Shown in pieces: positions 13,555 to 30,588 of a stretch of DNA of 64,000 nt. Source of the stretch: Candidatus Kryptobacter tengchongensis (lineage in GTDB: Bacteria > Bacteroidota > Ignavibacteria > Kryptoniales > Kryptoniaceae). Within the stretch, counting starts at the first letter, position 1, and the number at the start of each line of letters is the position of its first letter. The position numbers were made by a program, and so were the translations under genes. The notes beneath the pieces are model-generated. The model ran no database searches. It was not told the DNA's origin and worked only from the letters and a program-made list of their open reading frames with translations. The DNA lies in NCBI GenBank assembly GCA_001485605.1, contig FAON01000004.1, forward strand, positions 248,001 to 312,000. Direction: 5' to 3'.

Positions 13555-13558
13555 ACAA

Positions 13559-13576
13559 GGGGGCAAATATGCCCCC
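13559..13576. terminator. Terminator hairpin between convergent genes
   Basis: A 7-bp stem GGGGGCA/TGCCCCC with a 4-base loop lies between the converging ends of the Asp-box gene (plus) and the octahaem lipoprotein gene (minus). On the minus strand it is followed by a T-rich run (TTGTTTATTTT), so it fits best as the terminator of the cytochrome operon. It may serve both directions. Confidence 0.7.
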
Positions 13577-13584
13577 CATTTAGC

Positions 13585-14739: not shown

Positions 14740-14759
14740 TTTTGTTCAGCTTTTAATTT

Positions 14760-15980: not shown

Positions 15981-16008
15981 TTTTAAACCTAAATTTAATT
16001 TTATTTAA

Positions 16009-17292
16009 TCAGCGAATCACTTCCCCTGGGACAAGACCAAGATTTGTGAAAAGCCAATAATTAAATTTGAAAAATACTCTAAAATCGGATTTATAAACTC
16101 TATTCTGGATATACTGCGATTGAACATCAAATGAAATAGATTTGCTGGGCTTTACACTTCCACCCAAAGCTATGACTAAATCTTTATGTCTTTCTCCACC
16201 TTCCCATAGTTTATAAGAAGAAAAAGTCAAACTTGCATTCGGAATAAATCTATTGTTAAACATCGGATAATAAACCTGTGCTGATACACCGTCAAGCTCA
16301 CCAGCATAACCCAATCTTTTTGCGAAGTTAACAGAAGCATATCCAACATCAAATCCAAGCACAATTCTTTGAGCCTTATCATCAACATAACGAACATTTG
16401 AAAAACCAGCATAGACTCTCAAAAGAGATGAGATCCTGTAATGAACCCCCGCTTCAACTTCTTTAGTTGCGCCATAATTGAAAACAGAGAAAATTGAATT
16501 CACCGGAATTCTTGGATCCCTGTAATCATAGCTAACACTCAACTTTAATCTTTCAATTAAATTAATACCAATTGAAACCTCACCCCTTGAAAATTTAACC
16601 TTATTTATGTCATAGTCAAGTCGTGAATAAAATTCAAAAATTGAGAGCTCATAATTTAAATCGCCACTTACAATCTGATATTGTGAAGATGTAAAATTGA
16701 TTTCCTGAACGAAGACATCGCCAAGGCTATCTGCACGAAGGGCTTCATAAGCTTTCGGTTTACGATGTTGATTGAAATAACTTAACGAGGCATTAAGAGA
16801 ACCCTTTGAAAATTTTAACTGCCCTCCAAACATAAAATTATTTTTCGGCTCATCGTTCAAAGCAAATTTCTGGTCTTGAGGCATGAGAAATCCACCGTAA
16901 ACATTCGCATTTAAAAACTTGGAAATTTTTGCATTGACATATGCCCCATCAATAGTACCAACACCAACGCCTGAATAAACGGCGAATCTCCCAAGCTTTA
17001 AATTGAAGCGGTTAAAGATATTTCTCCAGTTAAGATAAAAGTTATAAAATCTAAATCTTGGATCACCAGTCTGTTTTTCACGAAAATCATTTGAGATATT
17101 AACAAATGAATGTAACGATAAATTACCCTTGCTCAATGTTATCTGAGCAAGTTGAAACGCTCTAAGGTGCTCACTCCTTACCTCAGGGGTTTCATATCTC
17201 TGCCACATATAGGCTGTGGTTGTGAGGCGGAGATTTAGGTTCTGCGAAAACAAAAGCGCTGGGGCTAATAATAAAAGAAACAATTTTTTCAT
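16009..17292 (-). CDS. Outer-membrane beta-barrel protein of the cytochrome operon
   Basis: A 427-residue protein with a signal peptide ending near LLFSQ (about residue 16), followed throughout by alternating aromatic and polar strands typical of outer-membrane barrels, such as FNLKLGRFAVYSGVG and LKLSVSYDYRDPRI. No haem motif is present. The gene overlaps the 11-haem cytochrome gene upstream by four bases and precedes the 14-haem cytochrome gene, so it belongs to this electron-transfer operon. Its length is close to the Geobacter OmbB-type porins and well below MtrB. I infer a porin for a porin-cytochrome conduit, but sequence similarity to known conduit porins could not be tested. Confidence 0.75.
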   Translation of the reverse strand: MKKLFLLLLAPALLFSQNLNLRLTTTAYMWQRYETPEVRSEHLRAFQLAQITLSKGNLSLHSFVNISNDFREKQTGDPRFRFYNFYLNWRNIFNRFNLKLGRFAVYSGVGVGTIDGAYVNAKISKFLNANVYGGFLMPQDQKFALNDEPKNNFMFGGQLKFSKGSLNASLSYFNQHRKPKAYEALRADSLGDVFVQEINFTSSQYQIVSGDLNYELSIFEFYSRLDYDINKVKFSRGEVSIGINLIERLKLSVSYDYRDPRIPVNSIFSVFNYGATKEVEAGVHYRISSLLRVYAGFSNVRYVDDKAQRIVLGFDVGYASVNFAKRLGYAGELDGVSAQVYYPMFNNRFIPNASLTFSSYKLWEGGERHKDLVIALGGSVKPSKSISFDVQSQYIQNRVYKSDFRVFFKFNYWLFTNLGLVPGEVIR

Positions 17293-18716
17293 TTTTTTCT
17301 TTCAATTTGTTTGATTTTAAAATAAAGAGCAATCACAAGAATTGTTATTATCAATGTTGACATACCAAGTCCCCACCTTCTAAAATAGTATTCATCAATT
17401 GCATCAAGCCCAGCCTTGGTAACCCTGTCTATTATCTCATAACCAGGCGCAATCGTTTCTTTAAACTCATCAAGATTTGCCGTATGGATCACCGTTCTTG
17501 CTTTGATTAGAATTTGAGGGACATCGTTCATATCATACCTTGCATCAGACACATCCATACCCTTAAATTCAGCTTCATCAAGGATCGCTTTTGCTCTGTT
17601 TGTCCTCATAACAAGTGTATCAATCATATCTCTCATTTGCTTTGCCACTTCAAAACCTTTTTCTCCCTCTCTATGGCACTTTATACATGTTGACTTTGTG
17701 CTTATGCCAAGCATTTCATCGGTCGGTCGTTCAATTAGATGATTACCATGACAAACTTCACACTGCGGTATATTTCTCTTCTCAAAAACCTCGGCGTGGG
17801 GACTCCGTGAGAACATTTCAGCGTTTAAAGCATGACAGATACCACAAACATGCGAGATTGACTTAACACCAGGAGGAATAGCGCCGTGATTTCCGTGACA
17901 ATCGTTACAAGCTGGCGCTGACAAATCTCCTTTCTCAAGCAACGCCTTACCATGAACACTTTGAGCATATTTCTCGTATTGATCGGTCGGGATCTTATAA
18001 TCACGCATATAATTTGCGTCACTGTGACATCTTGCACAAGTTTTTGGTAAAGTTGAAGCGAAAACCGTTGACCTTGGATCGTTAGCTGGAAAGATATCAT
18101 GAGCGGAGTGGCAATCTGAACATGTTGCTACTTTGGTATCACCTTTCAAAATCCTTTGACCATGGACACTTGTTTTATATTTTTCAAACTGATCCGTTGG
18201 AAGAGCTGGATTAAACTTTTTCATATAATTCGCATCACTGTGGCATTTGCTACAAAGTCTAACCTCGGATGTTGGATAAACTGGGGATGTAGGATCATTT
18301 ACTTTTTTAATGTTGTGAACGCCATGACAAGTTACACATGTTGCAATTTCGCTTTTACCATGAACGCTTGCCTTAAAAAGTTTAAACTGATTTACATCAA
18401 TCTTTGAACCAAACTTTTTCATGACCATTTCATTTGAATGACACTTCAAACATACATCAATGATCTTATCGCCCTTGGGAATTCCAATAAACCCTTTCCC
18501 CTTGCTCATTGCAACTTCCATATCATCACTTGTTTTATCTCCGCCATGACAATCTGCACAAGAAACACCAAGTTTAAAATGGACATCTTTGGGGTAAAGT
18601 TCTGTTGCTTTATCCCCAACCGCATCTTTATGACAGTTATAACATCCATCTTTGCCTTGAGATAAAGCAAAAGTAAGTGTAAACAAAACAATCGCTAAAA
18701 TGACAAACTTCTTCAT
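17289..18716 (-). CDS. 11-haem membrane-tethered cytochrome c of the bc-type complex
   Basis: A 475-residue protein with a signal peptide, eleven CXXCH sites by direct count (CYNCH through CIKCH) and a C-terminal transmembrane helix (about 448-468) followed by a short Lys/Arg tail. Repeats of the form KYKTSVHG...CSDCHSAHDI and CSKCHSDANYMKKF recur across the domain. It directly follows cytochrome b and Rieske genes (21-base gap), in the place where cytochrome c1 or f would be. The likely role is electron acceptor from the Rieske protein on the periplasmic face. A region of about 100 residues between the last haem and the membrane helix is haem-free and helical. Confidence 0.87.
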   Translation of the reverse strand: MKKFVILAIVLFTLTFALSQGKDGCYNCHKDAVGDKATELYPKDVHFKLGVSCADCHGGDKTSDDMEVAMSKGKGFIGIPKGDKIIDVCLKCHSNEMVMKKFGSKIDVNQFKLFKASVHGKSEIATCVTCHGVHNIKKVNDPTSPVYPTSEVRLCSKCHSDANYMKKFNPALPTDQFEKYKTSVHGQRILKGDTKVATCSDCHSAHDIFPANDPRSTVFASTLPKTCARCHSDANYMRDYKIPTDQYEKYAQSVHGKALLEKGDLSAPACNDCHGNHGAIPPGVKSISHVCGICHALNAEMFSRSPHAEVFEKRNIPQCEVCHGNHLIERPTDEMLGISTKSTCIKCHREGEKGFEVAKQMRDMIDTLVMRTNRAKAILDEAEFKGMDVSDARYDMNDVPQILIKARTVIHTANLDEFKETIAPGYEIIDRVTKAGLDAIDEYYFRRWGLGMSTLIITILVIALYFKIKQIERKK

Positions 18717-18737
18717 CCAAGTTTAAATTTTTTATTT

Positions 18738-19820
18738 TTAATCTAACACATAACCAAGGATTGTCATTGTGAGCATGTAAATTAATACGAAAAGACCTAT
18801 ATAGTTTATCAATCTGTTTCTGTATCCTTTATCAGTTTTCACATCCCAAAATGGGACGAGCATCCAAAGTATTCCAGCAACTGTGAAGATGAGAAGACCG
18901 AAAAATTCACCTTCAATAAATAGAACTTTTGCGGGTAAAAGTTTTAATGTTTGATACATAAAGAGAAAATACCACTCTGGTTTGATCCCGGCAGGAGCGG
19001 GCGCAAATGGGTCAGCTTTTTTGCCAAGCTCCCATGGAAAAAAAACAGCAAGTATTGCAAGTATATTCAAAATTATAAGCCACAACAAAAGATCACGAAG
19101 CAGGAAGTTTGGAAAAAATGGAATGTATTTTCTTTTTTCGGGTGGAAGCTTCTCCCATTCAGGTGGTTCACTCATACCTTGAATTTGAATGAACAAAAGA
19201 TGAAGGAAAAGAATCACCGTAAAAATTCCCGGAAGTATTGCCACATGTAAGCCGAAAAACCTCGCAAGCGTTGCCCCTGTGACATCTTCACCACCACGAA
19301 CAATTCTTAACAGTTCCTTACCGATCACAGGAATTGAACCGATTATCTCCGTTCCAACCTTCGTTGCAAAAAAGGCAAGTTCATTCCACGGGAGAAGATA
19401 ACCACTGAAACCAAATGTAAGAGAGAAAATCAAAAGCAAGAAACCAGTCACCCAAGTTAACTCCCTTGGCTTGCGATATGCTTTTGTGAAATAAACACTA
19501 AACATATGAATAAAAACAGCAAGTATCATCAAATTTGCAGACCAGCTGTGAATTGAACGAATAAGCCAACCAAATTTAACCTTTGAAACTATAAATTGAA
19601 CACTTTCATAAGAGCTATCCTCCCCAACCCTATAATAAAGCAATAAAAGGATGCCGGTTACAACTTGAATTATAAATAAGAATAAACTCACCCCACCAAA
19701 ATAATACCAGATTGAATGCCTATGCCAAGGCACAGTTTTATGCGACATAAACTCAATAAAACTACGAATTTTATACCTTTCATCAAACCAGTTGAAAAAC
19801 TTTTCCCCGAGCCCACCCAT
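18738..19820 (-). CDS. Cytochrome b of a Rieske/cytochrome b complex (b6 plus subunit IV fused)
   Basis: A 360-residue membrane protein. The haem-ligand pairs are H91/H105 and H192/H207; the 15-residue spacing of the second pair is the b6-type spacing rather than the mitochondrial one. The Qo-site PEWY motif is present at about residues 281-284. The chain continues through subunit IV-like helices, so b6 and subunit IV are one protein. It oxidises quinol at the inner membrane and passes electrons to Rieske and low-potential haems. It lies three bases after the Rieske gene and before the 11-haem cytochrome gene, together forming a quinol:cytochrome c oxidoreductase-like unit. Confidence 0.95.
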
Positions 19821-19823
19821 ATC

Positions 19824-20267
19824 TTATCCTTCTTTTGTTATATAAATTTCGTCCCCTTTTATCACAACACGAAATGCCTCAAGAGGTCTTGGTGGAGGAC
19901 CCGATATATTTCTCCCGTTCAAATCATACTTCCCGTTATGGCAAGCGCACCAGATTGCTTTCATATCACTACGATACTGGACTGTACAATCAAGATGTGT
20001 GCAAACTGCGGAAAAAGCACGAAATTCACCTGTCTCAAGCCGAATTAAAAGACCAGGTTTACTCCCAAACTTAAAAATTGTCCCCGTGCCTGGTTTGAAA
20101 TCATCAATTTTCCCAACCTTCACACTTTTCACTTTTGCCTCAGGCATTTTAGGAGGATTGATATACCGAAAGATTGGATATAGAACAGAGACAAGCCAAC
20201 CTAAAAAACCAAATCCCAAAATATAACTTAAAAAATCACGCCTTGACCTTTTAAAATCAGAATTCAT
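19824..20267 (-). CDS. Rieske iron-sulphur protein of the bc-type complex
   Basis: A 147-residue protein with a twin-arginine-like N-terminus (RSRRDFLSY), one membrane helix (about 13-35) and a C-terminal Rieske fold. Ligand motifs are C89-x-H91 and C107-x-C109-H110, with C94 and C109 forming the usual disulphide. I chose the ATG at 20267; the frame extends upstream only to a TTG at 20279. It donates electrons from quinol to the downstream multihaem cytochrome. It is first of the downstream cytochrome block and begins only about 42 bases after a terminator-like hairpin, leaving little room for a promoter. Confidence 0.94.
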   Translation of the reverse strand: MNSDFKRSRRDFLSYILGFGFLGWLVSVLYPIFRYINPPKMPEAKVKSVKVGKIDDFKPGTGTIFKFGSKPGLLIRLETGEFRAFSAVCTHLDCTVQYRSDMKAIWCACHNGKYDLNGRNISGPPPRPLEAFRVVIKGDEIYITKEG

Positions 20268-20309
20268 TAGATTTATCAATTTCTTTTTTCTTTATTTAAA
20301 AAACATAAG

Positions 20310-20341
20310 AGGGCATATCCCATACATTCAGGATATGCCCT
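20310..20341 (-). terminator. Terminator between the two cytochrome blocks
   Basis: An 11-bp perfect stem (AGGGCATATCC/GGATATGCCCT) with a 10-base loop. On the minus strand it is followed by CTTATGTTTTTTAAA. It lies 10 bases past the stop of the tetrahaem cytochrome gene and about 42 bases before the Rieske ATG. Confidence 0.82.
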
Positions 20342-20351
20342 AAATCCCAAA

Positions 20352-20909
20352 TCATTCTGCCTTTGGAAGTGGATGAGCTATTTTTGGCCACTCTTTCTTA
20401 AAATCAAACCCTTTAAATGTTGGACTTTGCTCATTGTGGCAGGTCTTGCAAAGTTTTTCTGCACTCCCATCTGAAACCAAAACAAGCACAAGCCCGTTCT
20501 TTACTGCTTCTTCTCTGTTTTGCATAATCTTCAAAGTTTTATAGTCTGACCCTGGACCATGGCAAGCTTCACATTGAACGCCGTCTTCAACTTTAAATTT
20601 CTCTAAAAACGCTTCCTTTGGAGCGCCATAACCTGTGACATGGCATTTCAAACACTCGGGCGCCTCATGCGGGGGAACTTTAATCCCCTTTTCTTGTGCG
20701 ATTTTCTTCGCCTCTTCCGTCTTCAATGTCTCATATGCCTTTGCATGCTTGCTTGCCTGCCAAATCTCAAACATTTTCCCTTTCTTTTCACCCTTATGAC
20801 ATGGTGCACAAACTGCAACGCCAACATACTTATGTTTAGGTGCCTCTTGTGAGATCAAATAACCCAAAACGAGTGGAACCAAAAGTAAAACGAGCAAATA
20901 TCTTTTCAT
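20352..20909 (-). CDS. Tetrahaem cytochrome c554-like protein
   Basis: A 185-residue exported protein with a signal peptide (about 1-20) and four CXXCH sites (CAPCH, CLKCH, CEACH, CKTCH). The segment VGVAVCAPCHKG, the WQASKHAKAYETL helix and GVQCEACHGPGSDYK match the cytochrome c554 family, known as electron carriers of hydroxylamine oxidoreductase and also found beside unrelated respiratory complexes. It is the last gene of the upstream block, before a terminator. Here it is probably a periplasmic shuttle; no hydroxylamine oxidoreductase gene is in the window. Confidence 0.88.
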   Translation of the reverse strand: MKRYLLVLLLVPLVLGYLISQEAPKHKYVGVAVCAPCHKGEKKGKMFEIWQASKHAKAYETLKTEEAKKIAQEKGIKVPPHEAPECLKCHVTGYGAPKEAFLEKFKVEDGVQCEACHGPGSDYKTLKIMQNREEAVKNGLVLVLVSDGSAEKLCKTCHNEQSPTFKGFDFKKEWPKIAHPLPKAE

Positions 20910-20970
20910 TTTTCCTCCATATGTTAATTTTTGTTTTGCGTATTTATTTTAACAAAAACAAATCAAAATG

Positions 20971-22932
20971 TCAATCTCGCTCTCCAACCATAGGGGAACT
21001 AATTCGCCTTTTCATATCACGAAGGACATCAACAACAAGACCATAATTATGCAAACCCGATGCACTCCATTTCTCAATTTCAAACACAATCTTTAAAATT
21101 TCATCTTTATCTTTTCCTTGATACTTTGGAGCTAAGTCCTTGATTTCGGCAATTAACTTCCTTACATCATCCTTCCATTCAACGGCCATATTGTCATAAC
21201 CAGATTCATGACAATTAAGACACACTTTCTCACTTGGTTTTACAACCTTATTGTTCACAACATGACAATCAACGCATTCAACCCCTGCTTGGCTCATAAC
21301 ATCAGGACTTCCCCTGCCCATAAAAGTCCCCTCATAAATTCTATTTGACTCCAAATGGCATGTTTTACAATCCTGAGATGCAATCTTCTGATGATGGCAT
21401 GAATTACACCTATCCTTCGTTAAAATTAATTCACCGTGCTTTCTTGCGTTTGAATGACATACATTGCAATTTAAATTATTTTCCTGAACATGTTTTGCGT
21501 GTGAAAAGATAGTGCCGTAAATAGAATTTGATATGTTCTCAATACCAGTATGGCAATTTGCACATTCACTTGGGACTTTTGAAGAAGAAAATCTCTTTGG
21601 AAGATCATAATTTACCTTTGCTAACCTTAAAGCTTCGGCAAGATATTCATAACCTTTTGAAATTATTTGATCTGAATATGTTATGTTGTGAACCGCTTTA
21701 CCTGCTTCAACAATTTGAACTGCGCTTTTCGCCTTTTCAATATATTGCTTTGCCTCGGAAACATTTACAAGCGAATCAACAATGCTAATCTGCTCCTTTA
21801 ATTGTTTTATCTTTTTATCAGCGCCCTCCTCCCACAGTGCAAGAAGTTTTGCATAGCCCTTTCCGTGACATACCTCGCACGATTGTGGTTTTGCAACCTT
21901 AACCTTTGCTTTACCGATCAGCTCCTCGTGAAAAACATGACAGCTTGCACAACTCAAACCAGCTTCAAACATTGGATTCGGGTGACCCTTTAACCCGTTC
22001 ATATCTTTCCCAGTGAACAAAAATAACTGCTGTTTATGCTCACCCACATGACAAGCGCTACATTCAAGCTCCTCTTCGGGATTTATTTTTCTAATTTTAT
22101 GTTGAATTGTGAGATGACATTGTATACATTCAATCTTGTGCTCCGTTATATGAACTCTATGTAACAAAGTCGTATTTTCATATTGACTCAAACGAGCATG
22201 ATCAAAATGACAAGAATAACAATTTTCTCTTGGAACAAACCCATCACCAATCACTGTATTAACATGACAGCGTGTGCATTCAATTTTTCTCTCTACAATG
22301 CTGGAATGATCATATTTATACTTTGACATCTCCTCTTTTGGAATAGACTCCCAATGATGGCATGTTTGGCAACTTGACAATTTTTTGTAAGTTACAAATT
22401 CAACATCACCATCTCGTTTGAAATGACAGAGAAAACAAGTTGTTTCAGTAACAGTAATATGTTCCCCTTGAACTATTTGCGAATGACAACTTGTGCATCT
22501 TAATTTTTTACCTCGCCTCATTTCCTCAAGATGCGGGGTATGATCAAAGACAACACCTTTAAAGATAACTTTACCTTTCAACAATCTTGTCTCATGGCAA
22601 CCGCTCTGCAAACACGACTCATCCGAAATTTCTGCCCAAGGCTTTCTTTTTGTATATGAGCGGGCAAAATAATTCACAACTTGAACAAGCCCCTCAAGTT
22701 TCCCTCTCACAGTCCCAGCAAGACCAGGCGGGAAATGACACCTGACGCAGGTAACATCTCTATGCGTTGATGTCTTCCAACTTTCATAAAATGGCTCCAT
22801 ATAATGACATGTTGGACAAAAAGAAGGTCTAGATGTAAATTCAGCCGAAAACGCTAAAACAAACAAAAAAGCTAAAACGCCGATGCCAATCTTCAAACCA
22901 AGTTTCCCTACCTTTTTCATTTTCCTGATCAT
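20971..22932 (-). CDS. Giant NapC/NirT-type multihaem cytochrome c (18 haem sites)
   Basis: A 653-residue protein. An N-terminal membrane anchor (about 10-30) leads into a NapC/NirT-like start with SFCPTCHYMEPFYESWKTSTH and CVRCHFPPG. I count seventeen CXXCH sites plus one CX4CH (CLQSGCH) as third site. Two haem-free helical segments interrupt the haem clusters: one near 375-440 containing AVHN and a C-terminal one containing GLHN, suggesting an internally duplicated two-half design. It overlaps its paralogue upstream by four bases. NapC-type domains take electrons from membrane quinol, so it could be a quinol-linked haem wire. No enzyme family could be assigned. Confidence 0.85.
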   Translation of the reverse strand: MIRKMKKVGKLGLKIGIGVLAFLFVLAFSAEFTSRPSFCPTCHYMEPFYESWKTSTHRDVTCVRCHFPPGLAGTVRGKLEGLVQVVNYFARSYTKRKPWAEISDESCLQSGCHETRLLKGKVIFKGVVFDHTPHLEEMRRGKKLRCTSCHSQIVQGEHITVTETTCFLCHFKRDGDVEFVTYKKLSSCQTCHHWESIPKEEMSKYKYDHSSIVERKIECTRCHVNTVIGDGFVPRENCYSCHFDHARLSQYENTTLLHRVHITEHKIECIQCHLTIQHKIRKINPEEELECSACHVGEHKQQLFLFTGKDMNGLKGHPNPMFEAGLSCASCHVFHEELIGKAKVKVAKPQSCEVCHGKGYAKLLALWEEGADKKIKQLKEQISIVDSLVNVSEAKQYIEKAKSAVQIVEAGKAVHNITYSDQIISKGYEYLAEALRLAKVNYDLPKRFSSSKVPSECANCHTGIENISNSIYGTIFSHAKHVQENNLNCNVCHSNARKHGELILTKDRCNSCHHQKIASQDCKTCHLESNRIYEGTFMGRGSPDVMSQAGVECVDCHVVNNKVVKPSEKVCLNCHESGYDNMAVEWKDDVRKLIAEIKDLAPKYQGKDKDEILKIVFEIEKWSASGLHNYGLVVDVLRDMKRRISSPMVGERD

Positions 22933-24905
22933 TTTTGTTTTTCCACAAACTCAAATCCTTTGATAAAATTTACAATTTTTTGTGTTAACTCATCCATAAA
23001 TTGCAAGTTATGGGCTCCGTAAGAACCCTCACTAACAAAATCATCAACCATTCTCCTAAGTTTATCAAACTCCACAATCTCAGCGGAACTTTCGCTGGAT
23101 TTCAACTTTTTAATTATCTCAGGCTTCATCTTTTCCCACTTTGAAATCAATTCCTTAATTTTGTCCCTCTTCCGAGCAAAATCGTCAATATATTCTTTCT
23201 CATGACACGCCCCACAAATTTCAACACTTGGCTTAACAGGAAGATTTCCCTCCGTCACATGGCAGTCTTGACATGAAACCCCAGCTTGAAACATAAAATC
23301 TTCAGTGTCAGCCAAAAATTTGCCTTGATAGAAATTCACCTGCTTTGAATGACAACTTTCACACTTAGCCTCACTTACCGGGGAAGTTAAATTTCTATGA
23401 TGGCAACTATTACAATTACTTGCAACATCAAGTATCCTGCCGTGATTAACCTGCACGGGCTCCCCACCTGTATGACAATTGACACAGTTTAGTTTGAAAA
23501 GATGAACCCCATGGGGAAAGTTTTTGCCATTATACGCACTGTTCAAATTTTCAATCCCGAAATGACAATCAAGACACCTTGAATTATTTTTATAAACTGC
23601 TTCAAGCTCTGGCTTGCCCCTCCATGTATCTATCTTTTTCTCAATTGCATCAAGAAGCAAATTCACATACTTTATATTGTGAGCACCGTAGCTTCCATCT
23701 TTCTTCACAATCTCAAAATTAACCCTAACATCTTCATCTTTGAATTTTTTCAATCCAGCTCTTTTCAAAAGTCCCGCTATTTCAATTTCATACTCAATCT
23801 TTTGGATTCTCTCCTTTACAATTTTTTGCCATTTTTGAACGAGCTTATCATATCCTTTGCCGTGACAGTTACTGCAAGAATTTGGATTGAACTCAGGAAG
23901 CTCAAAACTTACCTCGGCATGTGTTTTTACGAGCTTAACCTCATGACATCCTCTGCACGAAACCCCAGCCAAAAACATCGGGTCAGGCAACACCGCAACA
24001 TCTCTGCCACCACTCCCAGAATAAACTTTTTCTTGAACCGAATGTTTATTTCCATGACATTCTTGACATACAGGAGAAAAAACCTCAAAAACTTCAACTT
24101 TACCATGCTTTATTTCATCATGACATTTAAAGCAGTTAATTTTTTCATTGCTCACATGAACCTCATGCATCTTCTTTGACCCAAGCGTCATCCCTGTTAT
24201 GTTTATATGACATGCGGAACATTTATCTAACCTTACATCGCCTCTCCCAACCGTAACATGAAGATGGCATGTTCCACATTCAATTTTGTTCTTCACATAC
24301 TCCGAATGATTAAACGGGATTCCCCATATCATTATATCATCTTTTGGTGGACCATGACAGCTACCGCAACCTGAAACAGGATAGCTTCGTGCAACCTCAC
24401 CTCCGGGGAAATGACAAAGGATACAAATTTTTGTAGAAACCGCCTCATGGCGACCTTGAACAAGTTCAGAATGACATGTCTGACATTGCAACTTAAAACC
24501 TATTTTCCCTTCGTCCAGATGTTTCGCATGCGAAAACTTAACTTTACCACCCACAAAAAATATCTCTTTATCAACAAATTTTTTCTCCTCGTGACATTTA
24601 ATGCATGACTCATTATCAACTTTTGATGTGATCTCATAACTATAAGCACCAAGATAGTACCTTGCTATCTCAGAGAGCAATCGGATTTTCCCTTTTAAAT
24701 AGTTTCCAACACCGGGACCATAATGACATGTTATGCAGTTAACTTGATTATGCGTTGAAGACAACCAATTTTCGTAATAAGGTTTCATAAAATGGCACGA
24801 ACCACAGTATTCAGGGTCATCTGAAGTTCTCAAAAAAAGAAAGAAAAGATAAACGATAAAAAACAGCGATAGAACTAAAACGATTATCTTACCCTTACTT
24901 CTCAT
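22929..24905 (-). CDS. Giant NapC/NirT-type multihaem cytochrome c (18 haem sites), paralogue
   Basis: A 658-residue paralogue of the following gene, with eighteen CXXCH sites by direct count. The N-terminal anchor (about 7-27) precedes YCGSCHFMKPYYENWLSSTH and CITCHYGPGVGNYLKGK, again NapC/NirT-like. Each half ends in a haem-free helical region with a GSYGAHN motif (around residues 410 and 625), a strong sign of internal duplication. The gene overlaps the cytochrome b gene upstream by 11 bases and its paralogue downstream by four, so the three are likely co-translated. The partner cytochrome b could hand it electrons from quinol. Confidence 0.85.
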   Translation of the reverse strand: MRSKGKIIVLVLSLFFIVYLFFLFLRTSDDPEYCGSCHFMKPYYENWLSSTHNQVNCITCHYGPGVGNYLKGKIRLLSEIARYYLGAYSYEITSKVDNESCIKCHEEKKFVDKEIFFVGGKVKFSHAKHLDEGKIGFKLQCQTCHSELVQGRHEAVSTKICILCHFPGGEVARSYPVSGCGSCHGPPKDDIMIWGIPFNHSEYVKNKIECGTCHLHVTVGRGDVRLDKCSACHINITGMTLGSKKMHEVHVSNEKINCFKCHDEIKHGKVEVFEVFSPVCQECHGNKHSVQEKVYSGSGGRDVAVLPDPMFLAGVSCRGCHEVKLVKTHAEVSFELPEFNPNSCSNCHGKGYDKLVQKWQKIVKERIQKIEYEIEIAGLLKRAGLKKFKDEDVRVNFEIVKKDGSYGAHNIKYVNLLLDAIEKKIDTWRGKPELEAVYKNNSRCLDCHFGIENLNSAYNGKNFPHGVHLFKLNCVNCHTGGEPVQVNHGRILDVASNCNSCHHRNLTSPVSEAKCESCHSKQVNFYQGKFLADTEDFMFQAGVSCQDCHVTEGNLPVKPSVEICGACHEKEYIDDFARKRDKIKELISKWEKMKPEIIKKLKSSESSAEIVEFDKLRRMVDDFVSEGSYGAHNLQFMDELTQKIVNFIKGFEFVEKQK

Positions 24906-25758
24906 CCGATTTTTCCTCCTTCATAAGTTTCTCCCTCATTATTTTCTCATATTCAAGCGGATGTTCTTTTATCATTCTCTCTTTTGAAATCTTTCCAGTG
25001 AATATCGTTGGGTTAAATGGAAATACATGTGGATTAAAATGAGCATTATACCAATGCCATATCACAATTGCAAGGGTTGCAAGCATTGCCTCATCTGAAT
25101 GAGCTTCTTTAGCTATATCAAAAACAAACTTTGGGAAAATACCAAGAAAGAAATTATGAAACCACAAAATCAAACCTGATAAAACCATGATAACCATCCC
25201 CCAGTAAACAGCCCAATAATCAAATTTTTCAATATACGAATACCTCCCATATTTTGGACGTTCATTTGTCTTACCAAGCATGTATTTTATATTCTGCCAG
25301 AAATCAAGAAAATCCTTCTTCCTTGGCAAAAGCTCCCTGAATTCTTTTCTTCCTTCCTTCGTAAATGCGATATAAATTGTATGCCATATTGAAACAAAAA
25401 TTAACATCCCAGCCCCGACCCTGTGAAGTATTCTTGACACCTGAATTCCACCTATAACTTCAAAAAACAACTCCGCCCATTTTGATTCGTGAAATTTTAT
25501 CGGGAGCCCAGTTATTATCAACAATAAAACCCCAATTGCAAGCGTTAAATGCTGAAGCCGAATATTCAAACTGAAACGAACAAAATACTCCTCTTCAACT
25601 TTTTCCTCAACCTCTTTTTTCCTTCGTTCAATCTCAGCTTTTATTTTCTCCGCAATTTCATTTTTTAACCTTTCCCTAAATTCATCATCAAGCGTGATGC
25701 CCTTCTCTATTTCAACCTCATGTATTAATTTTTCCGCCTCCTTTTTTGGCTCCATCAT
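24895..25758 (-). CDS. Membrane dihaem cytochrome b (FdnI/HydC-like) with charged N-terminal extension
   Basis: A 287-residue protein. Residues 1-60 are a strongly charged Glu/Lys helix absent from its paralogues. Four membrane helices follow, with the cytochrome b561/formate dehydrogenase gamma pattern: NIRLQHLTLAIGVLLLIITG in helix 1, LHRVGAGMLIFVSIWHTIYIAF in helix 2, and IVIWHWYNAHFNPHVFPFN near the end. These His residues are the likely haem b ligands. It is the second of three such cytochromes b in this block and overlaps the 18-haem cytochrome gene, suggesting a quinol-oxidising membrane subunit for it. The cytoplasmic coiled extension is unexplained. Confidence 0.85.
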   Translation of the reverse strand: MMEPKKEAEKLIHEVEIEKGITLDDEFRERLKNEIAEKIKAEIERRKKEVEEKVEEEYFVRFSLNIRLQHLTLAIGVLLLIITGLPIKFHESKWAELFFEVIGGIQVSRILHRVGAGMLIFVSIWHTIYIAFTKEGRKEFRELLPRKKDFLDFWQNIKYMLGKTNERPKYGRYSYIEKFDYWAVYWGMVIMVLSGLILWFHNFFLGIFPKFVFDIAKEAHSDEAMLATLAIVIWHWYNAHFNPHVFPFNPTIFTGKISKERMIKEHPLEYEKIMREKLMKEEKSDEK

Positions 25759-25762
25759 TTAA

Positions 25763-26797
25763 TCACTCCTTTTTTCTTTTCCTTCTTATATGTCCGATCA
25801 AATCAAGAACAATATGAGTAAAAAGCCCAATTAATACAATTAATGTGAACCATTTAAAGAATGTATAAACATAATACACAATTCCGGATTCCCTCTCTCC
25901 CGGCAAAACATGAAATTTCCCCTTTGCGACATTTTCATTTGCCCTTGGATGACACTTGCCACATGTCTTGGCAAGATTTGCCGGATGAATCGGAGACCTC
26001 GGGTCTCGGGAAGGTAAAACACTATGATATTCATGACATGAAGCACAATTCGCAGCTCTTACGACCCCAAATTTTAATGCTATCCCGTGAAAACTCTCTT
26101 TATACGCCTCTGGATTCTGAACTGGAACCCCAACTCTTTTCATCAGCTTAACATCTGAATGACATTTATCACATGTCCCAACGACATTTTTAGGATTTAA
26201 ACTTGACCTCGGATCTTCCGGCGGTAAAATATCATGCTCACGATGACAGTCCGAACAAACAGCTGAGCTCAATTCGCCCTTTTGAATCCCAGCCCAGTGA
26301 ATTGAATTATAATATTCTTCTTTTACAGTTTCATGACACCTTCCACAAAGTTCAGGTATCCTCGTTTTATAAACACTTGAATTAGGGTCCTCTGGTTTTC
26401 TCACATAATGAACCGTATGACAATCTTTACAATCAGGGGCATTTTTACCCTTTGCAAGGGCTTTCGCATGAACGCTCTCTTTATACTTCTCTGGTTTAGC
26501 CGTGACAGGTGCTCCAACCACATTCCCCTCAAAATGACACTGCAAGCAATGAATCCTTTGTGGCTTTGTTAAATGAGGTATCACACGAACATCAACATGA
26601 CATGAGACACAGGCAAATTTGCTATGAACCGAAGCTTCAAAATCTTCTTTTGAAACATAAAGTGATTTAAATTTCCCATGTTCAACGATTCCGAAATTCT
26701 TAACACCATGACAAACAAAACAACGCTCATTTCTAAGCTGCGCACTTGTCTGAGATACCGCGAACAAAAAAATCGCAAAATATAAAAATCTCCTCAT
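25763..26797 (-). CDS. 9-haem cytochrome c with C-terminal membrane anchor
   Basis: A 344-residue exported protein with a signal peptide (about 1-19), nine CXXCH sites (CFVCH through CGKCH) and one membrane helix near 310-332 with a basic tail. Haem repeats have the form YKESVHAKALAKG...CKDCHTVHYV, like those of the large fusion at 27771-30173. Its C-terminal CASCH...HSVLPSRDPRSPIHP...CGKCHP segment closely matches the same part of the fusion. The cytochrome b gene upstream overlaps it by four bases, so the pair corresponds to a split version of the fusion protein, like Geobacter Cbc-type complexes. Confidence 0.88.
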   Translation of the reverse strand: MRRFLYFAIFLFAVSQTSAQLRNERCFVCHGVKNFGIVEHGKFKSLYVSKEDFEASVHSKFACVSCHVDVRVIPHLTKPQRIHCLQCHFEGNVVGAPVTAKPEKYKESVHAKALAKGKNAPDCKDCHTVHYVRKPEDPNSSVYKTRIPELCGRCHETVKEEYYNSIHWAGIQKGELSSAVCSDCHREHDILPPEDPRSSLNPKNVVGTCDKCHSDVKLMKRVGVPVQNPEAYKESFHGIALKFGVVRAANCASCHEYHSVLPSRDPRSPIHPANLAKTCGKCHPRANENVAKGKFHVLPGERESGIVYYVYTFFKWFTLIVLIGLFTHIVLDLIGHIRRKRKKE

Positions 26798-27501
26798 TTC
26801 CCATATCCCTTATTTTTTATCTCCTCTGATGAACTTGTCAAATTAAGATATTCAAGGTAATGATTTTCCTTAAGCCACTCCTCTGAAACATAACCATGCC
26901 AGAACGAAGCATTTATAGGGAAATTGCTCGGAGAAAAATGAACAAGATAAAGATGCCAAAGCACAAGAAATGTTATCACAAGCGTTGCTGTTGCACTATG
27001 TAATGCCTGCGAAAAGTCAAAGAACCATTTCGGTAAAATTCCAAATAAATAATTGTGGAACCACAGAACAATACCGCTTAAAATCATCAAAATAACGAAC
27101 AAAAAGAACGCCCAGTATTGGATTTTTTCCTTATAAGAATATCTACCATACATCGGTGGCTTTTCATTTTTCCCAATATCATACCTTATGCTTTCAACAA
27201 AATCCGCAAAGTCTTTCTTCCTCGGCAACAACTCTCTAAACTCTTTTCTCCCCTCCCTCGTGAACAAAATATAAATCAAATGATAAACTGCCGTAATAAA
27301 AAGAAGTACTGCTGAAATTCTGTGCAATGTTCCCCTCGTCTCAAAACCCCCCTCAATAAATATCAAAAATCTTCCAAACCAAGTATCATGATACCTCAAA
27401 GCAAAACCTGTGATTATCAAAAGCGTTACACTTACCATCAAAAGGAAATGTTGAATTCTCCACGATAAAGAAAAACGCAAAACTTTCTTTTCAGAGGGCA
27501 T
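26794..27501 (-). CDS. Membrane dihaem cytochrome b (FdnI/HydC-like)
   Basis: A 235-residue protein of four membrane helices with RIQHFLLMVSVTLLIITG, LHRISAVLLFITAVYHLIYILF and LVLWHLYLVHFSPSNFPIN, whose His residues fit haem b ligands of the formate-dehydrogenase-gamma type. I chose the ATG at 27501; a TTG at 27513 opens the same frame. It lies between the rubrerythrin-like gene (15 bases) and the 9-haem cytochrome gene (four-base overlap). It probably oxidises menaquinol and passes electrons to the 9-haem partner on the outer face of the membrane. Confidence 0.86.
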   Translation of the reverse strand: MPSEKKVLRFSLSWRIQHFLLMVSVTLLIITGFALRYHDTWFGRFLIFIEGGFETRGTLHRISAVLLFITAVYHLIYILFTREGRKEFRELLPRKKDFADFVESIRYDIGKNEKPPMYGRYSYKEKIQYWAFFLFVILMILSGIVLWFHNYLFGILPKWFFDFSQALHSATATLVITFLVLWHLYLVHFSPSNFPINASFWHGYVSEEWLKENHYLEYLNLTSSSEEIKNKGYGK

Positions 27502-27516
27502 TTTCAACCTCAAATT

Positions 27517-27774
27517 TTATTCATAATATTCAAAACTTGACCTTATGCCATTAAGAATTGAAACTTCTGCTTCAAGCTCCTTTAGTTTCTCCTCAAGCAA
27601 TCTCCTATGTTCTTTTTCCATCTCGGCAAGCTCAAGCAAAAACTTTTGAATACTTGGTTCGCAAGCCTTTAATGAAGCGGAATAGTAATAATCAAATGAA
27701 TCCTTCTCTCTTTCAATTGCTACTTTCAAGATTTCAATCATTATGTTCTTAATTTCCTTCTCTTCGCAGTTCAT
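27517..27774 (-). CDS. Small rubrerythrin/ferritin-like helical protein
   Basis: An 85-residue, wholly helical protein resembling one two-helix half of the rubrerythrin diiron domain: Glu21 in AIEREKDSFDYYYSA and the E53-x-x-H56 motif in EMEKEHRRLL. A full diiron site would need a dimer. A Cys at residue 3 and one at 38 are present; no rubredoxin domain follows. Its start overlaps the fusion cytochrome gene by four bases and its stop is close to the next cytochrome b gene, so it is embedded in the respiratory operon. Possible roles are peroxide protection or metal/haem assembly, but neither is shown by sequence. Confidence 0.7.
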   Translation of the reverse strand: MNCEEKEIKNIMIEILKVAIEREKDSFDYYYSASLKACEPSIQKFLLELAEMEKEHRRLLEEKLKELEAEVSILNGIRSSFEYYE

Positions 27775-30173
27775 ACAAATTCTCCTTTTTTAATTTCCTG
27801 AAGTTTTATTTTCTCAAGCTCAAGTGGATGTTCCTTTTCCATTTCCTCTTCAGTTAAATATCCGGTTATCCAAGCGAAGTTCATCGGATAAACATCTGGA
27901 TTGAAGATAACATAATAAATGTGCCAGACGATGATAGCAAGGAATGCAAGCCACGCTTCAAAATAGTGAATTGTGTTGCAAACATCAACAAATGTTTTTG
28001 AGAGCCACCCCATAAAATGATTCTCAAACCATAAAACAACACCTGTCACAGTCATCACAACAGTTCCCCAAATCAAAGCCCAGTATTCACTCTTCTCAAT
28101 ATAATTAAACCTCCCAAACTTCGGTTTTTCTTTTGAAAGCCCAAGGTTATATTTCAAAACCTGAACCATATCCCTTAAATCTTGCATTCTAAACATTATG
28201 TCTCGTATAAACTCACGTCCACGCCTCGTAAATATAATGTAATACAAATGATAAATTGAATCAATGACAAGCACAATCGCTGCAATCCTGTGAATCAACC
28301 CTCTATATTTGAACACCGCCTCACCGCCGATATTTCTAATTGCTGCAACCCACCACGCATCGGGAAAAGCAAGCATAAAACCAGTTATAACAAGTGTAAA
28401 GAAACTCACAACGAGTGCTAAATGCTGTATCCTTTCTTCAAGCGTCATTCTCAAATAAAGATTTGTCTTTCTTGGAAGTTCGTTCGCAGGATGCGACATC
28501 TTTGCATGTCTTTGTTTATACTTATCAATTGTTTTTCTTATCCAGTCAAGAAGATTATGAACGAACATTGAACCGACGATTGAGACAATTAAAACAATGT
28601 AAATCGTTGAAACCCAGTAAATAATTTTATCATCCGAGCTTGCAACTGTCACATGAATTTTGCCCTTGGTGAAATTTTCATTCGCTCCAGGATGGCATTG
28701 ACCACATGTTTTAACAAGATTTACTTTGTTAATTCTTGATCTTGGATCAGAAGAAGGCAAAATATCATGAACCCCATGACAACTGGCGCAATTCGCAGCC
28801 TCAACATTTCCTAATCTAACATTTAAACCATGATAGCTATCCGTAAATGTTTTAAATTTATCGGCGGGTATACCGTATTTTTCAGCAAGTTTAACAGAGG
28901 CATGACATTTTGAGCAGAGCTGTAAAGCAACATTTTTTGGAGCTACGGGCGACCGTGGATCGGTTGGTTCAAGGATCAAATGTTCACCATGACAATCCGT
29001 GCACGCAGGTGAATCAAAATTACCCTTTGCAAGAGCAAGACCATGGATGCTTTCTCTGAATTCATCGGATATTTTTGTATGACATCTACCACAGGTTGAG
29101 GTTATGTTAAGTTTATAAACCTTTGAATTTGGATTGCTTGCTTTCATCATTTCATGCGCACCGTGACAATCACTGCAAACCGCTACATCCTGATTACCCG
29201 CCTTGAACAATCTCCCGTGAACGCTATTTTCATAAGAAGCAATAAAAGATGAAACATGCGTCATCCTGCTCCTAACATCAGGATTATCAAGATGACATTT
29301 CAAACATACTTCAATCTCATTCGCCCTGCTTATCTTTGATTTACCGCTCGTAACCTTCATTATATCATGTTCCCCGTGACAATCTACGCACGAAGGAGCA
29401 GCCTCAAACCCGCTGACAAAAGCCTTTCCATGTTCAGACTCAAAATAATCCTTCGCTATTCCCTCATGACACTTTTCACATGTCTTCCCTACGTTTGCCC
29501 TTGCAACAGTTGAATTCGGATCTCTTGCGTTCAAAACTTTATGTCCCGTATGACAATCAGAACAATTTATATACTGCGCATGTATGCTTTCCTTATACTT
29601 TAAAACAAACTCCTGATACTTATGAACAATCTTCTTATCGCTATGACATTTAATACAAACATCAGACGACGCAAATTTAATTGAATGATACCCATGACAT
29701 GAGATACAATCAGCTCCATTTTTAAAACTAAAATGAGCACTTATCTTATAATCTTCAAATTCCTTCTTATGGCACGAAGAACATTGTTTCGTAAAATCAG
29801 CCCTTGATACTTTAACTATTTTGTGAGCATTCCCGTGGCACGAAATACAGTTAATTTTTCCAAAGTGCTTGCTTGATTTGAAACTTGAAACCTCATCTAA
29901 ATGACAATTTGAACAATTAACTGGCTCAATTTTCTCCTTATGCGGGATCTCCTCTGGATTAAACTGCTCATGACAATCAACACAGTTTAGCGACCCATGG
30001 AGAGATTTGTTAAATTCATTTGAATTAATATAAAGAGAAATCACTCTGCCTCCTTTCTCCATAATCAATGTCTTGTCCTCGTGACAAGCAAAACAATCAG
30101 CATTGGTTTGCGCAGATAGCTTAAGTATGAAAATCACACTTAAGATTGAAAATATTGAAAGTTTTCTAATCAT
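27771..30173 (-). CDS. CbcL-like fusion: 17-haem cytochrome c domain plus membrane cytochrome b
   Basis: An 800-residue protein. After a signal peptide (about 1-21) come seventeen CXXCH sites by direct count, ending near residue 500. A membrane helix (about 515-540) and a basic linker lead to a four-helix dihaem cytochrome b domain (about 570-770) with RIQHLALVVSFFTLVITG, LIHRIAAIVLVIDSIYHLYYIIF and IIVWHIYYVIFNPDVYPMN. This is the layout of Geobacter CbcL (HydC/FdnI-like b plus multihaem c), although CbcL has fewer c haems. It should take electrons from quinol and deliver them to the periplasm. It is the first structural gene of the upstream block; a degenerate receiver gene lies 49 bases before it. 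Confidence 0.88.
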   Translation of the reverse strand: MIRKLSIFSILSVIFILKLSAQTNADCFACHEDKTLIMEKGGRVISLYINSNEFNKSLHGSLNCVDCHEQFNPEEIPHKEKIEPVNCSNCHLDEVSSFKSSKHFGKINCISCHGNAHKIVKVSRADFTKQCSSCHKKEFEDYKISAHFSFKNGADCISCHGYHSIKFASSDVCIKCHSDKKIVHKYQEFVLKYKESIHAQYINCSDCHTGHKVLNARDPNSTVARANVGKTCEKCHEGIAKDYFESEHGKAFVSGFEAAPSCVDCHGEHDIMKVTSGKSKISRANEIEVCLKCHLDNPDVRSRMTHVSSFIASYENSVHGRLFKAGNQDVAVCSDCHGAHEMMKASNPNSKVYKLNITSTCGRCHTKISDEFRESIHGLALAKGNFDSPACTDCHGEHLILEPTDPRSPVAPKNVALQLCSKCHASVKLAEKYGIPADKFKTFTDSYHGLNVRLGNVEAANCASCHGVHDILPSSDPRSRINKVNLVKTCGQCHPGANENFTKGKIHVTVASSDDKIIYWVSTIYIVLIVSIVGSMFVHNLLDWIRKTIDKYKQRHAKMSHPANELPRKTNLYLRMTLEERIQHLALVVSFFTLVITGFMLAFPDAWWVAAIRNIGGEAVFKYRGLIHRIAAIVLVIDSIYHLYYIIFTRRGREFIRDIMFRMQDLRDMVQVLKYNLGLSKEKPKFGRFNYIEKSEYWALIWGTVVMTVTGVVLWFENHFMGWLSKTFVDVCNTIHYFEAWLAFLAIIVWHIYYVIFNPDVYPMNFAWITGYLTEEEMEKEHPLELEKIKLQEIKKGEFV

Positions 30174-30222
30174 ATGTGCTTTTGAATTTATTTGAAAGGG
30201 GGATATAGTTCATAAATCAGAT

Positions 30223-30588
30223 TCAGGTCGACAAGCTTTTGAACTCACTTATTAAATTTTTCAACTCCGATATCCTGAAAAGTTTCTCCCCACACTTTAT
30301 AACCCTCTCATCTTCAATCTCAAGATTTTCGCTCAACGCATAGAACGGAGCGATATAAATTATCTTCGCTTTCGGCATCAACTCATTCATAATCATCTTA
30401 ACATCAAATTGATTCTGCTTATAGATATTCTCATCAATTATCACAATGTCAAATTTATCTTGAGCCATTTTCTCCATCATTTCCCGCCCAGACACAGCAC
30501 TTGAAACCTCAAAACCTTCACGGATAAGGAATTTGACGAGCAAGTTTCGCATTGATTCATCAGCGTCAACAACAAGAACTTTCTTCAT
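30223..30588 (-). CDS. Stand-alone, atypical response-regulator receiver domain
   Basis: A 121-residue single receiver domain with no output domain. Acidic pocket residues D8, D10 and E11 and the phosphoacceptor position D52 (DIVIIDEN) are present. The conserved Ser/Thr at the end of strand 4 is replaced by Ala80 (IIYIAP), and the usual Lys-Pro of strand 5 is altered (around K101, EKLF). The switch after phosphorylation may therefore be lost or changed. It lies just upstream of, and in the same direction as, the cytochrome block, so it may be co-transcribed and may signal or scaffold in respiration or motility. That link is inference. Confidence 0.8.
   Translation of the reverse strand: MKKVLVVDADESMRNLLVKFLIREGFEVSSAVSGREMMEKMAQDKFDIVIIDENIYKQNQFDVKMIMNELMPKAKIIYIAPFYALSENLEIEDERVIKCGEKLFRISELKNLISEFKSLST

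What the first reader, a model, noticed from the sequence alone, without database searches (positions are those of the whole stretch)
20352..30173. Seven-cytochrome upstream block; 99 covalent haem sites in 17 kb
By direct count the upstream block encodes 17+9+18+18+4 = 66 haem c sites and three dihaem cytochrome b modules; the downstream block adds 33. The genes overlap or are separated by a few bases almost throughout. The combination of a CbcL-like fusion, a split Cbc-like pair and NapC-type giants suggests several parallel quinol outlets with different redox potentials in one locus. Geobacter uses CbcL and ImcH (NapC-type) in this way, at different potentials; here all types sit together.
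Basis: partly seen in the sequence, partly recalled or inferred. Interest (0 to 1): 0.7.

Follow-up and report, generated by a model that had tools for sequence, protein, structure and literature searches.

The report
Modular cytochrome operon for extracellular respiration
A hot-spring Kryptonium-type bacterium carries one 17-kb gene block that appears to send respiratory electrons from the inner membrane out through the outer membrane, and comparison with hundreds of relatives shows that the outer-membrane exit is constant while the inner-membrane electron outlets are interchangeable modules.

Summary
The upstream block has seven cytochromes with 66 covalent-haem motifs (65 CxxCH, one CX4CH) and three b modules with conserved His ligands; the downstream block adds 33, giving 99 (96 strict). 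An 85-aa rubrerythrin-like gene was missed. The organism is a close relative of Ca. Kryptonium. With the downstream Rieske/cytochrome b, beta-barrel, 14-haem and lipoprotein genes, the region is a complete inner-to-outer-membrane electron-export locus, collinear in congeners. Across relatives the conduit (T4, barrel, 14-haem, lipoprotein) is constant while inner-membrane modules come and go: CbcL-like fusion, a b-c-b-18-haem quartet, a second 18-haem giant, ImcH, Rieske/cytb/11-haem. That patchwork favours parallel quinol outlets over a serial chain. Corrections: the giants are NrfH-type (one TM, CxxCHxM), not ImcH, which is absent here; one giant (N18a) belongs with the split b/c genes, so there are about three or four outlets. 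In 245 class genomes giants and ImcH rarely co-occur (7 genomes). Different redox potentials remain untested. Iron respiration by this lineage was reported in outline in 2016, and Pcc and CbcL parts are known types. Verdict: new variant of a known kind, moderate interest.

The parts
30223..30588 (-). RR: receiver-domain-only response regulator, first gene of the cluster
   Evidence: PF00072 E 1.3e-10; conserved first gene in congeners
27771..30173 (-). A17: CbcL-like fusion, 17 haem c motifs + C-terminal dihaem b module (800 aa)
   Evidence: c3/c7 Pfam domains + PF01292; in the clade of CbcL-type fusions
27517..27774 (-).
   Evidence: PF02915 E 1.5e-7; 80-93% identical in congeners
26794..27513 (-). 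B1: stand-alone b-type cytochrome
   Evidence: PF01292 E 1.1e-17; own clade with Caldifarciminota B1
25763..26797 (-). C9: nine-haem c cytochrome with C-terminal TM helix
   Evidence: 9 CxxCH; TM near residue 305
24895..25758 (-). B2: stand-alone b-type cytochrome
   Evidence: PF01292 E 1.8e-14; own clade spanning several phyla
22929..24905 (-). N18a: NrfH/NapC-type membrane anchor fused to an 18-haem protein
   Evidence: PF03264 over cut-off; CxxCHxM invariant; adjacent to B2 and C9 in its clade
20971..22932 (-). N18b: second NrfH/NapC-type giant, 17 CxxCH + one CX4CH
   Evidence: PF03264 E 3.3e-12; N-terminus resembles NrfH 2j7a; clade distinct from N18a
20352..20909 (-). T4: small four-haem cytochrome c554-family protein, candidate periplasmic carrier
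   Evidence: PF13435 E 1.1e-22; upstream of the porin across the class
20310..20341 (-). Terminator-like hairpin between T4 and Rieske, conserved with compensatory changes in congeners
19824..20279 (-). Rieske [2Fe-2S] protein
   Evidence: PF00355 E 4.9e-13
18738..19820 (-). cytochrome b/b6-type subunit (360 aa)
   Evidence: PF00033 E 7.2e-52, PF13631 E 1.7e-44
17289..18716 (-). M11: 11-haem c cytochrome with C-terminal TM, in place of cytochrome c1/f
   Evidence: 11 CxxCH; TM near 450
16009..17292 (-). Outer-membrane beta-barrel (porin of the conduit)
   Evidence: about 24 strands in model, Foldseek best hits outer-membrane barrels; homologue in 157/245 class genomes
14760..15980 (-). M14: 14-haem c cytochrome, same size and motif number as Pcc periplasmic cytochrome IALB_1838
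   Evidence: 14 CxxCH, 406 aa; IALB_1838 is 400 aa with 14 motifs
13585..14739 (-). lip8: lipoprotein cytochrome, 6 CxxCH + CX3CH + CX4CH, candidate outer-surface cytochrome
   Evidence: lipobox LSSC; PF09698 Geobacter CxxxxCH...CXXCH
13558..13577 (-). Terminator-like hairpin at the end of the cluster

Best explanation
The region 13585-30588 is one modular extracellular-electron-transfer locus. Quinol is oxidised at the inner membrane by about three or four alternative modules: the CbcL-like fusion A17; a complex of B1, C9, B2 and the NrfH-anchored 18-haem N18a; a second NrfH-anchored 18-haem protein N18b; and a Rieske/cytochrome b/11-haem bc-type complex. All feed one Pcc-type outer-membrane conduit (T4 carrier, beta-barrel, 14-haem M14, lipoprotein cytochrome) that passes electrons to an extracellular acceptor such as Fe(III). 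The 18-haem giants probably act as long periplasmic wires from the quinol site. Shown: gene content, motifs, conserved order, module presence/absence, conserved hairpin. Inferred: quinol oxidation, complex membership, direction of flow, acceptor. Not shown: that the modules work at different potentials.
For: Domain and motif content. Collinear in congeners L032, L033, L035, with one indel in L034 and fragments L036/L037. Sister family keeps A17-T4-barrel-M14-lip8 with or without the B1-C9-B2-N18a quartet. Other families carry A17 + ImcH, or split A17 + N18b, with or without Rieske/cytb/M11, upstream of the same T4-barrel-M14-lip8. Barrel homologues in 157/245 class genomes; giants within 20 kb of it in 39 of 40 genomes, the other split over contigs. 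b modules fall in three separate old clades, not tandem copies. N18a with complete context is next to B2 and C9 in Kryptoniota and Caldifarciminota. CxxCHxM, the NrfH-type haem-1 motif, is invariant in 23 giants. Beta-barrel model. Iron respiration proposed for this lineage (PMC4737851).
Against: No expression, redox or growth data. Serial use or one supercomplex is not excluded. Direction (reduction of an acceptor or oxidation of an outside donor) is not set by sequence. The genome also has two haem-copper oxidases and two other cytochrome b genes, so aerobic life is possible. The barrel model has mean pLDDT 66 and was not matched to MtrB or OmbB.
Confidence: 0.62

Rival explanations
1. The seven upstream cytochromes form one serial chain or one large complex: the b subunits oxidise quinol and pass electrons through C9, N18a and N18b to T4, with no alternative outlets.
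For: Near-zero gaps or overlaps from A17 to N18b; B1-C9-B2-N18a recurs as a block.
Against: A17 is the only inner-membrane module directly upstream of the conduit in L046, L102, L103 and L104, and split A17 plus N18b in L048, L085 and L088. For the B1-C9-B2-N18a quartet itself this reading is accepted.
Confidence: 0.18
2. The locus runs inward: electrons from extracellular Fe(II) or a partner cell enter through the conduit and reduce quinone, feeding the cell's oxidases.
For: CbcL/MtrH/MtoC homologues occur in both Fe(III) reducers and Fe(II) oxidisers (PMC6295460); the genome has two haem-copper oxidases.
Against: The lineage is described as a heterotroph with a complete TCA cycle; ImcH, known only as a quinol oxidase in that survey, occupies the same operon in relatives; an outer lipoprotein cytochrome is present.
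Confidence: 0.12
3. The locus serves reduction of soluble acceptors (for example selenite, tellurite or nitrite) rather than solid-acceptor respiration, as proposed for the Geobacter ext cluster.
For: Rieske, cytochrome b, porin and multihaem set resembles extHIJKLMNOPQS (PMC5877670); NCBIfam ExtP hit to the cytochrome b, below cut-off; T4 belongs to the c554 family.
Against: No nitrite or sulfite reductase family over its cut-off in these proteins; the 14-haem/porin/lipoprotein trio fits a trans-membrane conduit.
Confidence: 0.08

Closest known systems
Ca. Kryptonia iron respiratory pathway (2016, PMC4737851)
   Same: Same lineage; the paper reports an elaborate, unique pathway for iron redox chemistry with components non-homologous to Mtr. 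Probably this locus.
   Different: Main text gives no gene anatomy; its Supplementary Fig. 8 could not be read here. No module analysis in the text read.
Pcc porin-cytochrome clusters, Ignavibacterium album IALB_1838 type (PMC4245776)
   Same: Beta-barrel next to a 14-haem, about 400-aa cytochrome; lipoprotein cytochrome with atypical motifs; related class.
   Different: Here joined to a full set of inner-membrane modules; strand count in a low-confidence model is about 24, above the 18-22 reported.
CbcL/MtrH/MtoC family
   Same: N-terminal multihaem c + C-terminal FdnI-like b module; 800 aa and 17 motifs lie within the reported 416-1034 aa and 3-23 motifs.
   Different: Direct identity to Geobacter CbcL not measured; sits in one operon with other outlets.
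Geobacter CbcBA / Cbc5 (cbcEDCBA)
   Same: Split c and b subunits encoded together, predicted menaquinol:cytochrome c oxidoreductase.
   Different: Two b subunits and an NrfH-anchored 18-haem partner; homology to CbcA/B/C not tested.
ImcH and NapC/NrfH/CymA
   Same: Like NrfH: single N-terminal TM, CxxCHxM haem 1. Like ImcH: sits beside the same conduit in the class.
   Different: 18 haems instead of 4-10; not ImcH (no 3 TM, no CX3CH first motif).
Geobacter extHIJKLMNOPQS
   Same: Rieske + cytochrome b + porin + multihaem + lipoprotein cytochrome in one cluster.
   Different: No rhodanese or ExtKL here; CbcL-type and giant modules added.
Rhodoferax ferrireducens mtrABC-cymA-cymA-mtrH cluster
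   Same: Several types of quinol oxidase in one cluster with an outer-membrane conduit.
   Different: Mtr conduit and CymA instead of Pcc conduit and 18-haem giants.

Membership tests
CbcL/MtrH/MtoC (A17) | N-terminal multihaem c domain (3-23 CX2CH) fused to FdnI/b561-type b module, 416-1034 aa | tested here: met
   17 CxxCH, PF01292 at 577-759, 800 aa; ranges from PMC6295460
CbcL/MtrH/MtoC (A17) | His ligands conserved in the membrane part | tested here: met
   His at 584, 628, 642, 736, 751 invariant or nearly so over 84 rows
CbcL/MtrH/MtoC (A17) | Six transmembrane segments | tested here: inconclusive
   Hydropathy scan: five plus an N-terminal signal-like segment
ImcH (N18a, N18b) | Three N-terminal TM segments and atypical CX3CH next to them, 5-9 CX2CH | tested here: not met
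   One TM, first motif CxxCH, 17-18 motifs; definition from PMC6295460; no full-length ImcH in genome
NapC/NrfH (N18a, N18b) | PF03264 domain, single TM anchor, haem 1 in CxxCHxM | tested here: met
   29.1 and 46.9 bits against cut-off 24.1; Met invariant in 23 rows; N-terminus aligns with NrfH 2j7a
NapC/NrfH (N18a, N18b) | Small protein with about four haems | tested here: not met
   650 aa with 18 motifs; works like NrfH at its N-terminus but is a fused giant form
NapC/NrfH (N18a, N18b) | Menaquinol oxidation | not testable with these tools
   needs biochemistry
Pcc porin-cytochrome conduit | Beta-barrel gene adjacent to a periplasmic c cytochrome (5-14 haems) and an outer-membrane c cytochrome | tested here: met
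   porin-M14(14)-lip8; barrel fold; ranges from PMC4245776
Pcc porin-cytochrome conduit | Sequence homology of the barrel to OmbB/OmbC | not tested
   no OmbB sequence at hand
Mtr conduit | MtrB 28-strand barrel with 10-haem MtrA | tested here: not met
   14-haem partner; no PDB sequence match for the barrel profile; about 24 strands in a low-confidence model
bc1/b6f-type complex (Rieske, cytb, M11) | Rieske [2Fe-2S] protein and cytochrome b N- and C-terminal domains encoded together | tested here: met
   PF00355, PF00033, PF13631, PF00032
bc1/b6f-type complex (Rieske, cytb, M11) | Cytochrome c1 or f as third subunit | tested here: not met
   11-haem M11 follows instead
CbcBA/Cbc5 (C9, B2) | Adjacent separate c and b subunits | tested here: met
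   C9-B2 gap 4 nt, kept across phyla
CbcBA/Cbc5 (C9, B2) | Sequence homology to Geobacter CbcA/CbcB | not tested

The most novel reading that the evidence does not exclude
NrfH-anchored 18-haem giants are an unrecognised family of quinol-oxidising, periplasm-spanning wires that take the place of ImcH and small periplasmic shuttles, handing electrons straight to the outer-membrane conduit, and N18a is the fourth subunit of a new b-c-b-giant quinol dehydrogenase found in at least two separate clades.
Probability: 0.3. Interest if true: 0.7.

Novelty: new variant of a known kind. Interest (0 to 1): 0.47.

Why it matters
Why bacteria keep several quinol outlets for one extracellular pathway is known mainly from Geobacter. 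Here the outlets sit as swappable modules next to one constant exit, across a class of bacteria, so evolution has already made many of the single-module deletions: relatives with only CbcL, CbcL plus quartet, CbcL plus ImcH, or CbcL plus giant can be compared directly. The near-exclusion of ImcH and the giants is a concrete, testable prediction of equivalent function, and thermophilic 18-haem quinol-anchored proteins are good targets for structure work.

Tried and rejected
Tandem duplication as the origin of the three b genes or of the two giants: rejected, they fall in separate old clades. A strict N18b-Rieske/cytb pairing: rejected, three of four f14 loci and L062/L064/L065/L071 lack it within 4.5 kb on the same strand, and congener G004 lost cytochrome b and M11 but kept N18b. 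ImcH elsewhere in the genome: only weak matches to the giants themselves. This bc complex as the only one in the genome: rejected, two other cytochrome b genes. One uninterrupted transcript: doubtful, a conserved hairpin lies between T4 and Rieske. The hairpin was sought in other families and not found consistently; my own hairpin scan missed several clear ones because of its tail rule, so searches are the evidence, not. Fold search with the N18b model gave nothing below E 0.001, only NrfH at the N-terminus.
Full report
OBSERVATION. Haem c motifs are 17+9+18+18+4 = 66 upstream, counting one CX4CH, and 11+14+8 = 33 downstream, counting one CX3CH and one CX4CH. Strict CxxCH gives 65+31 = 96. Shuffled sequences give about 0.1 per protein. 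A whole-genome count of the motif (292 against about 51 in the reversed control) puts roughly 40% of the genome's sites here. Intergenic gaps in the upstream block are -11 to +4 nt, apart from 61 nt before T4.

ORGANISM. The window is G000:C4:248001-312000 of a 2.68-Mb, 98.7% complete genome. Congeners' contigs are titled Candidatus Kryptonia, Candidatus Kryptonium thompsonii JGI-4 and Candidatus Thermokryptus; the sister family's are titled Bacteroidetes or Candidatus Kryptoniota.

PARTS. A17 has c3/c7 domains and a C-terminal PF01292 module; B1 and B2 are PF01292. Five His columns are invariant or nearly so over 84 b modules, consistent with dihaem b. N18a and N18b score over the PF03264 (NapC/NirT) cut-off, have one TM helix and an invariant CxxCHxM at haem 1. 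The N18 profile finds D. vulgaris NrfH at its N-terminus and the N18b model matches NrfH there, at a weak E of 0.011. ImcH is defined by three TM segments and a CX3CH motif (PMC6295460); the giants lack both, and the genome has no ImcH. T4 is a cytochrome c554-family protein. Rieske and cytochrome b are clear Pfam hits; M11 follows in the place of cytochrome c1/f. The protein at 16009-17292 has no Pfam match but models as a beta-barrel of about 24 strands (mean pLDDT 66) whose best PDB fold matches are outer-membrane barrels. M14 (406 aa, 14 motifs) matches in size and motif number IALB_1838 of Ignavibacterium album, described as the largest Pcc periplasmic cytochrome (PMC4245776). lip8 has a lipobox and atypical motifs, as Pcc outer cytochromes often do.

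CONSERVATION. Three congeners with complete loci are fully collinear with the window; two fragments of a further species agree; one species (G004) lacks cytochrome b and M11 and keeps a divergent Rieske gene. In the sister family, G011, G012, G014, G015 and G017 have A17-B1-C9-B2-N18a-T4-barrel-M14-lip8 (G015 split over two contigs), while G007, G008, G016 and G018 have only A17-T4-barrel-M14-lip8; G013 has a 19-haem/b pair in front of A17 instead. Family f14 has split A17-N18b-T4-barrel-M14-lip8, in one case with Rieske-cytb-M11. Families f13 and f17 have A17, mostly a 19-haem/b pair, then ImcH, often Rieske-cytb-M11, then barrel and M14, with T4 before or after. The conduit is the constant part; the inner-membrane set varies module by module. 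In 245 genomes of the class, the barrel was found in 157, ImcH in 128 and giants in 43. Giants lie within 20 kb of the barrel in 39 of 40 placeable genomes, ImcH in 29 of 108. Both occur together in only 7 genomes (Fisher p 1e-7 over all; 4e-19 among barrel-bearing genomes). These p-values ignore kinship: giants sit in five families, of which three (f1, f7, f14) have no ImcH and two (f2, f61) have both, so the honest unit is the family and the support is suggestive.

MODULES. The three b modules belong to three well-separated clades, each with members in other phyla, so the block is an assembly of old parts. N18a forms a clade (Kryptoniota, Caldifarciminota) in which every member with enough context stands next to B2 and C9; a second clade in Latescibacterota, Zixiibacteriota and Calditrichota has the same adjacency. 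N18a is therefore best read as a subunit of a B1-C9-B2-N18a complex. N18b is in a different clade and is often, not always, near Rieske/cytb.

MECHANISM. Best reading: about three or four quinol outlets (A17; the quartet; N18b; the bc-type complex) feeding one conduit. The natural loss of single modules with the conduit kept argues for parallel use; a serial chain would not survive loss of its middle. Shown are gene content, order, motifs and patchwork. Inferred are quinol oxidation, direction and acceptor. Different potentials, by analogy with Geobacter CbcL/ImcH/CbcBA (PMC12307469), are plausible but untested. The idea that the giants bridge the periplasm is inference from 18 haems and a membrane anchor.

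REGULATION. A terminator-like hairpin between T4 and Rieske occurs in all six Kryptonium-type genomes with a readable junction, with changed sequence and kept pairing: 6 of 11 pairs change on both sides, 93.9% of cells paired, 0 of 500 shuffles as high.

KNOWN OR NEW. The 2016 Kryptonia paper already proposes an elaborate iron respiratory pathway non-homologous to Mtr; its supplement was not readable here. Pcc conduits in Ignavibacteria, CbcL homologues in 15 phyla, and a multi-outlet cluster in Rhodoferax are published. What I did not find described in the library searched is the class-wide swapping of modules, the 18-haem NrfH-anchored giants, their near-exclusion with ImcH, and the b-c-b-giant quartet. 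Hence: new variant of a known kind.

Noticed in passing
window 20310-20341 (-): Terminator-like hairpin between T4 and Rieske with compensatory changes in congeners; not found consistently in other families.
   Followed up: partly
window 27517-27774 (-): 85-aa rubrerythrin-like gene overlapping the end of A17 by ATGA, kept in congeners but not seen in the sister family's quartet loci; a possible oxidative-stress or metal-related helper.
   Followed up: partly
L111:4356-4766: Congener G004 keeps a 56%-identical Rieske gene in front of the porin but has lost cytochrome b and M11: an orphan Rieske protein.
   Followed up: no
L109:13231-15312 and L110:6762-8147 (own genome): Two further multihaem proteins outside the window (693 aa with 9 motifs; 461 aa with 8 motifs).
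   Followed up: no
G000:C4:213229-216935: Eight CxxCH motifs in 1.6 kb next to a cytochrome b and near a haem-copper oxidase operon: probably a second, aerobic bc-type complex with a multihaem subunit.
   Followed up: no
L098:3788-5161: A sigma-54-type response regulator lies near the CbcL gene in a class relative, where Kryptonium has only a receiver-domain protein.
   Followed up: no
L050, L091, L092, L097 and others: Many class relatives carry another pair, a 19-haem protein with a stand-alone cytochrome b of a separate deep clade, beside CbcL and ImcH.
   Followed up: partly
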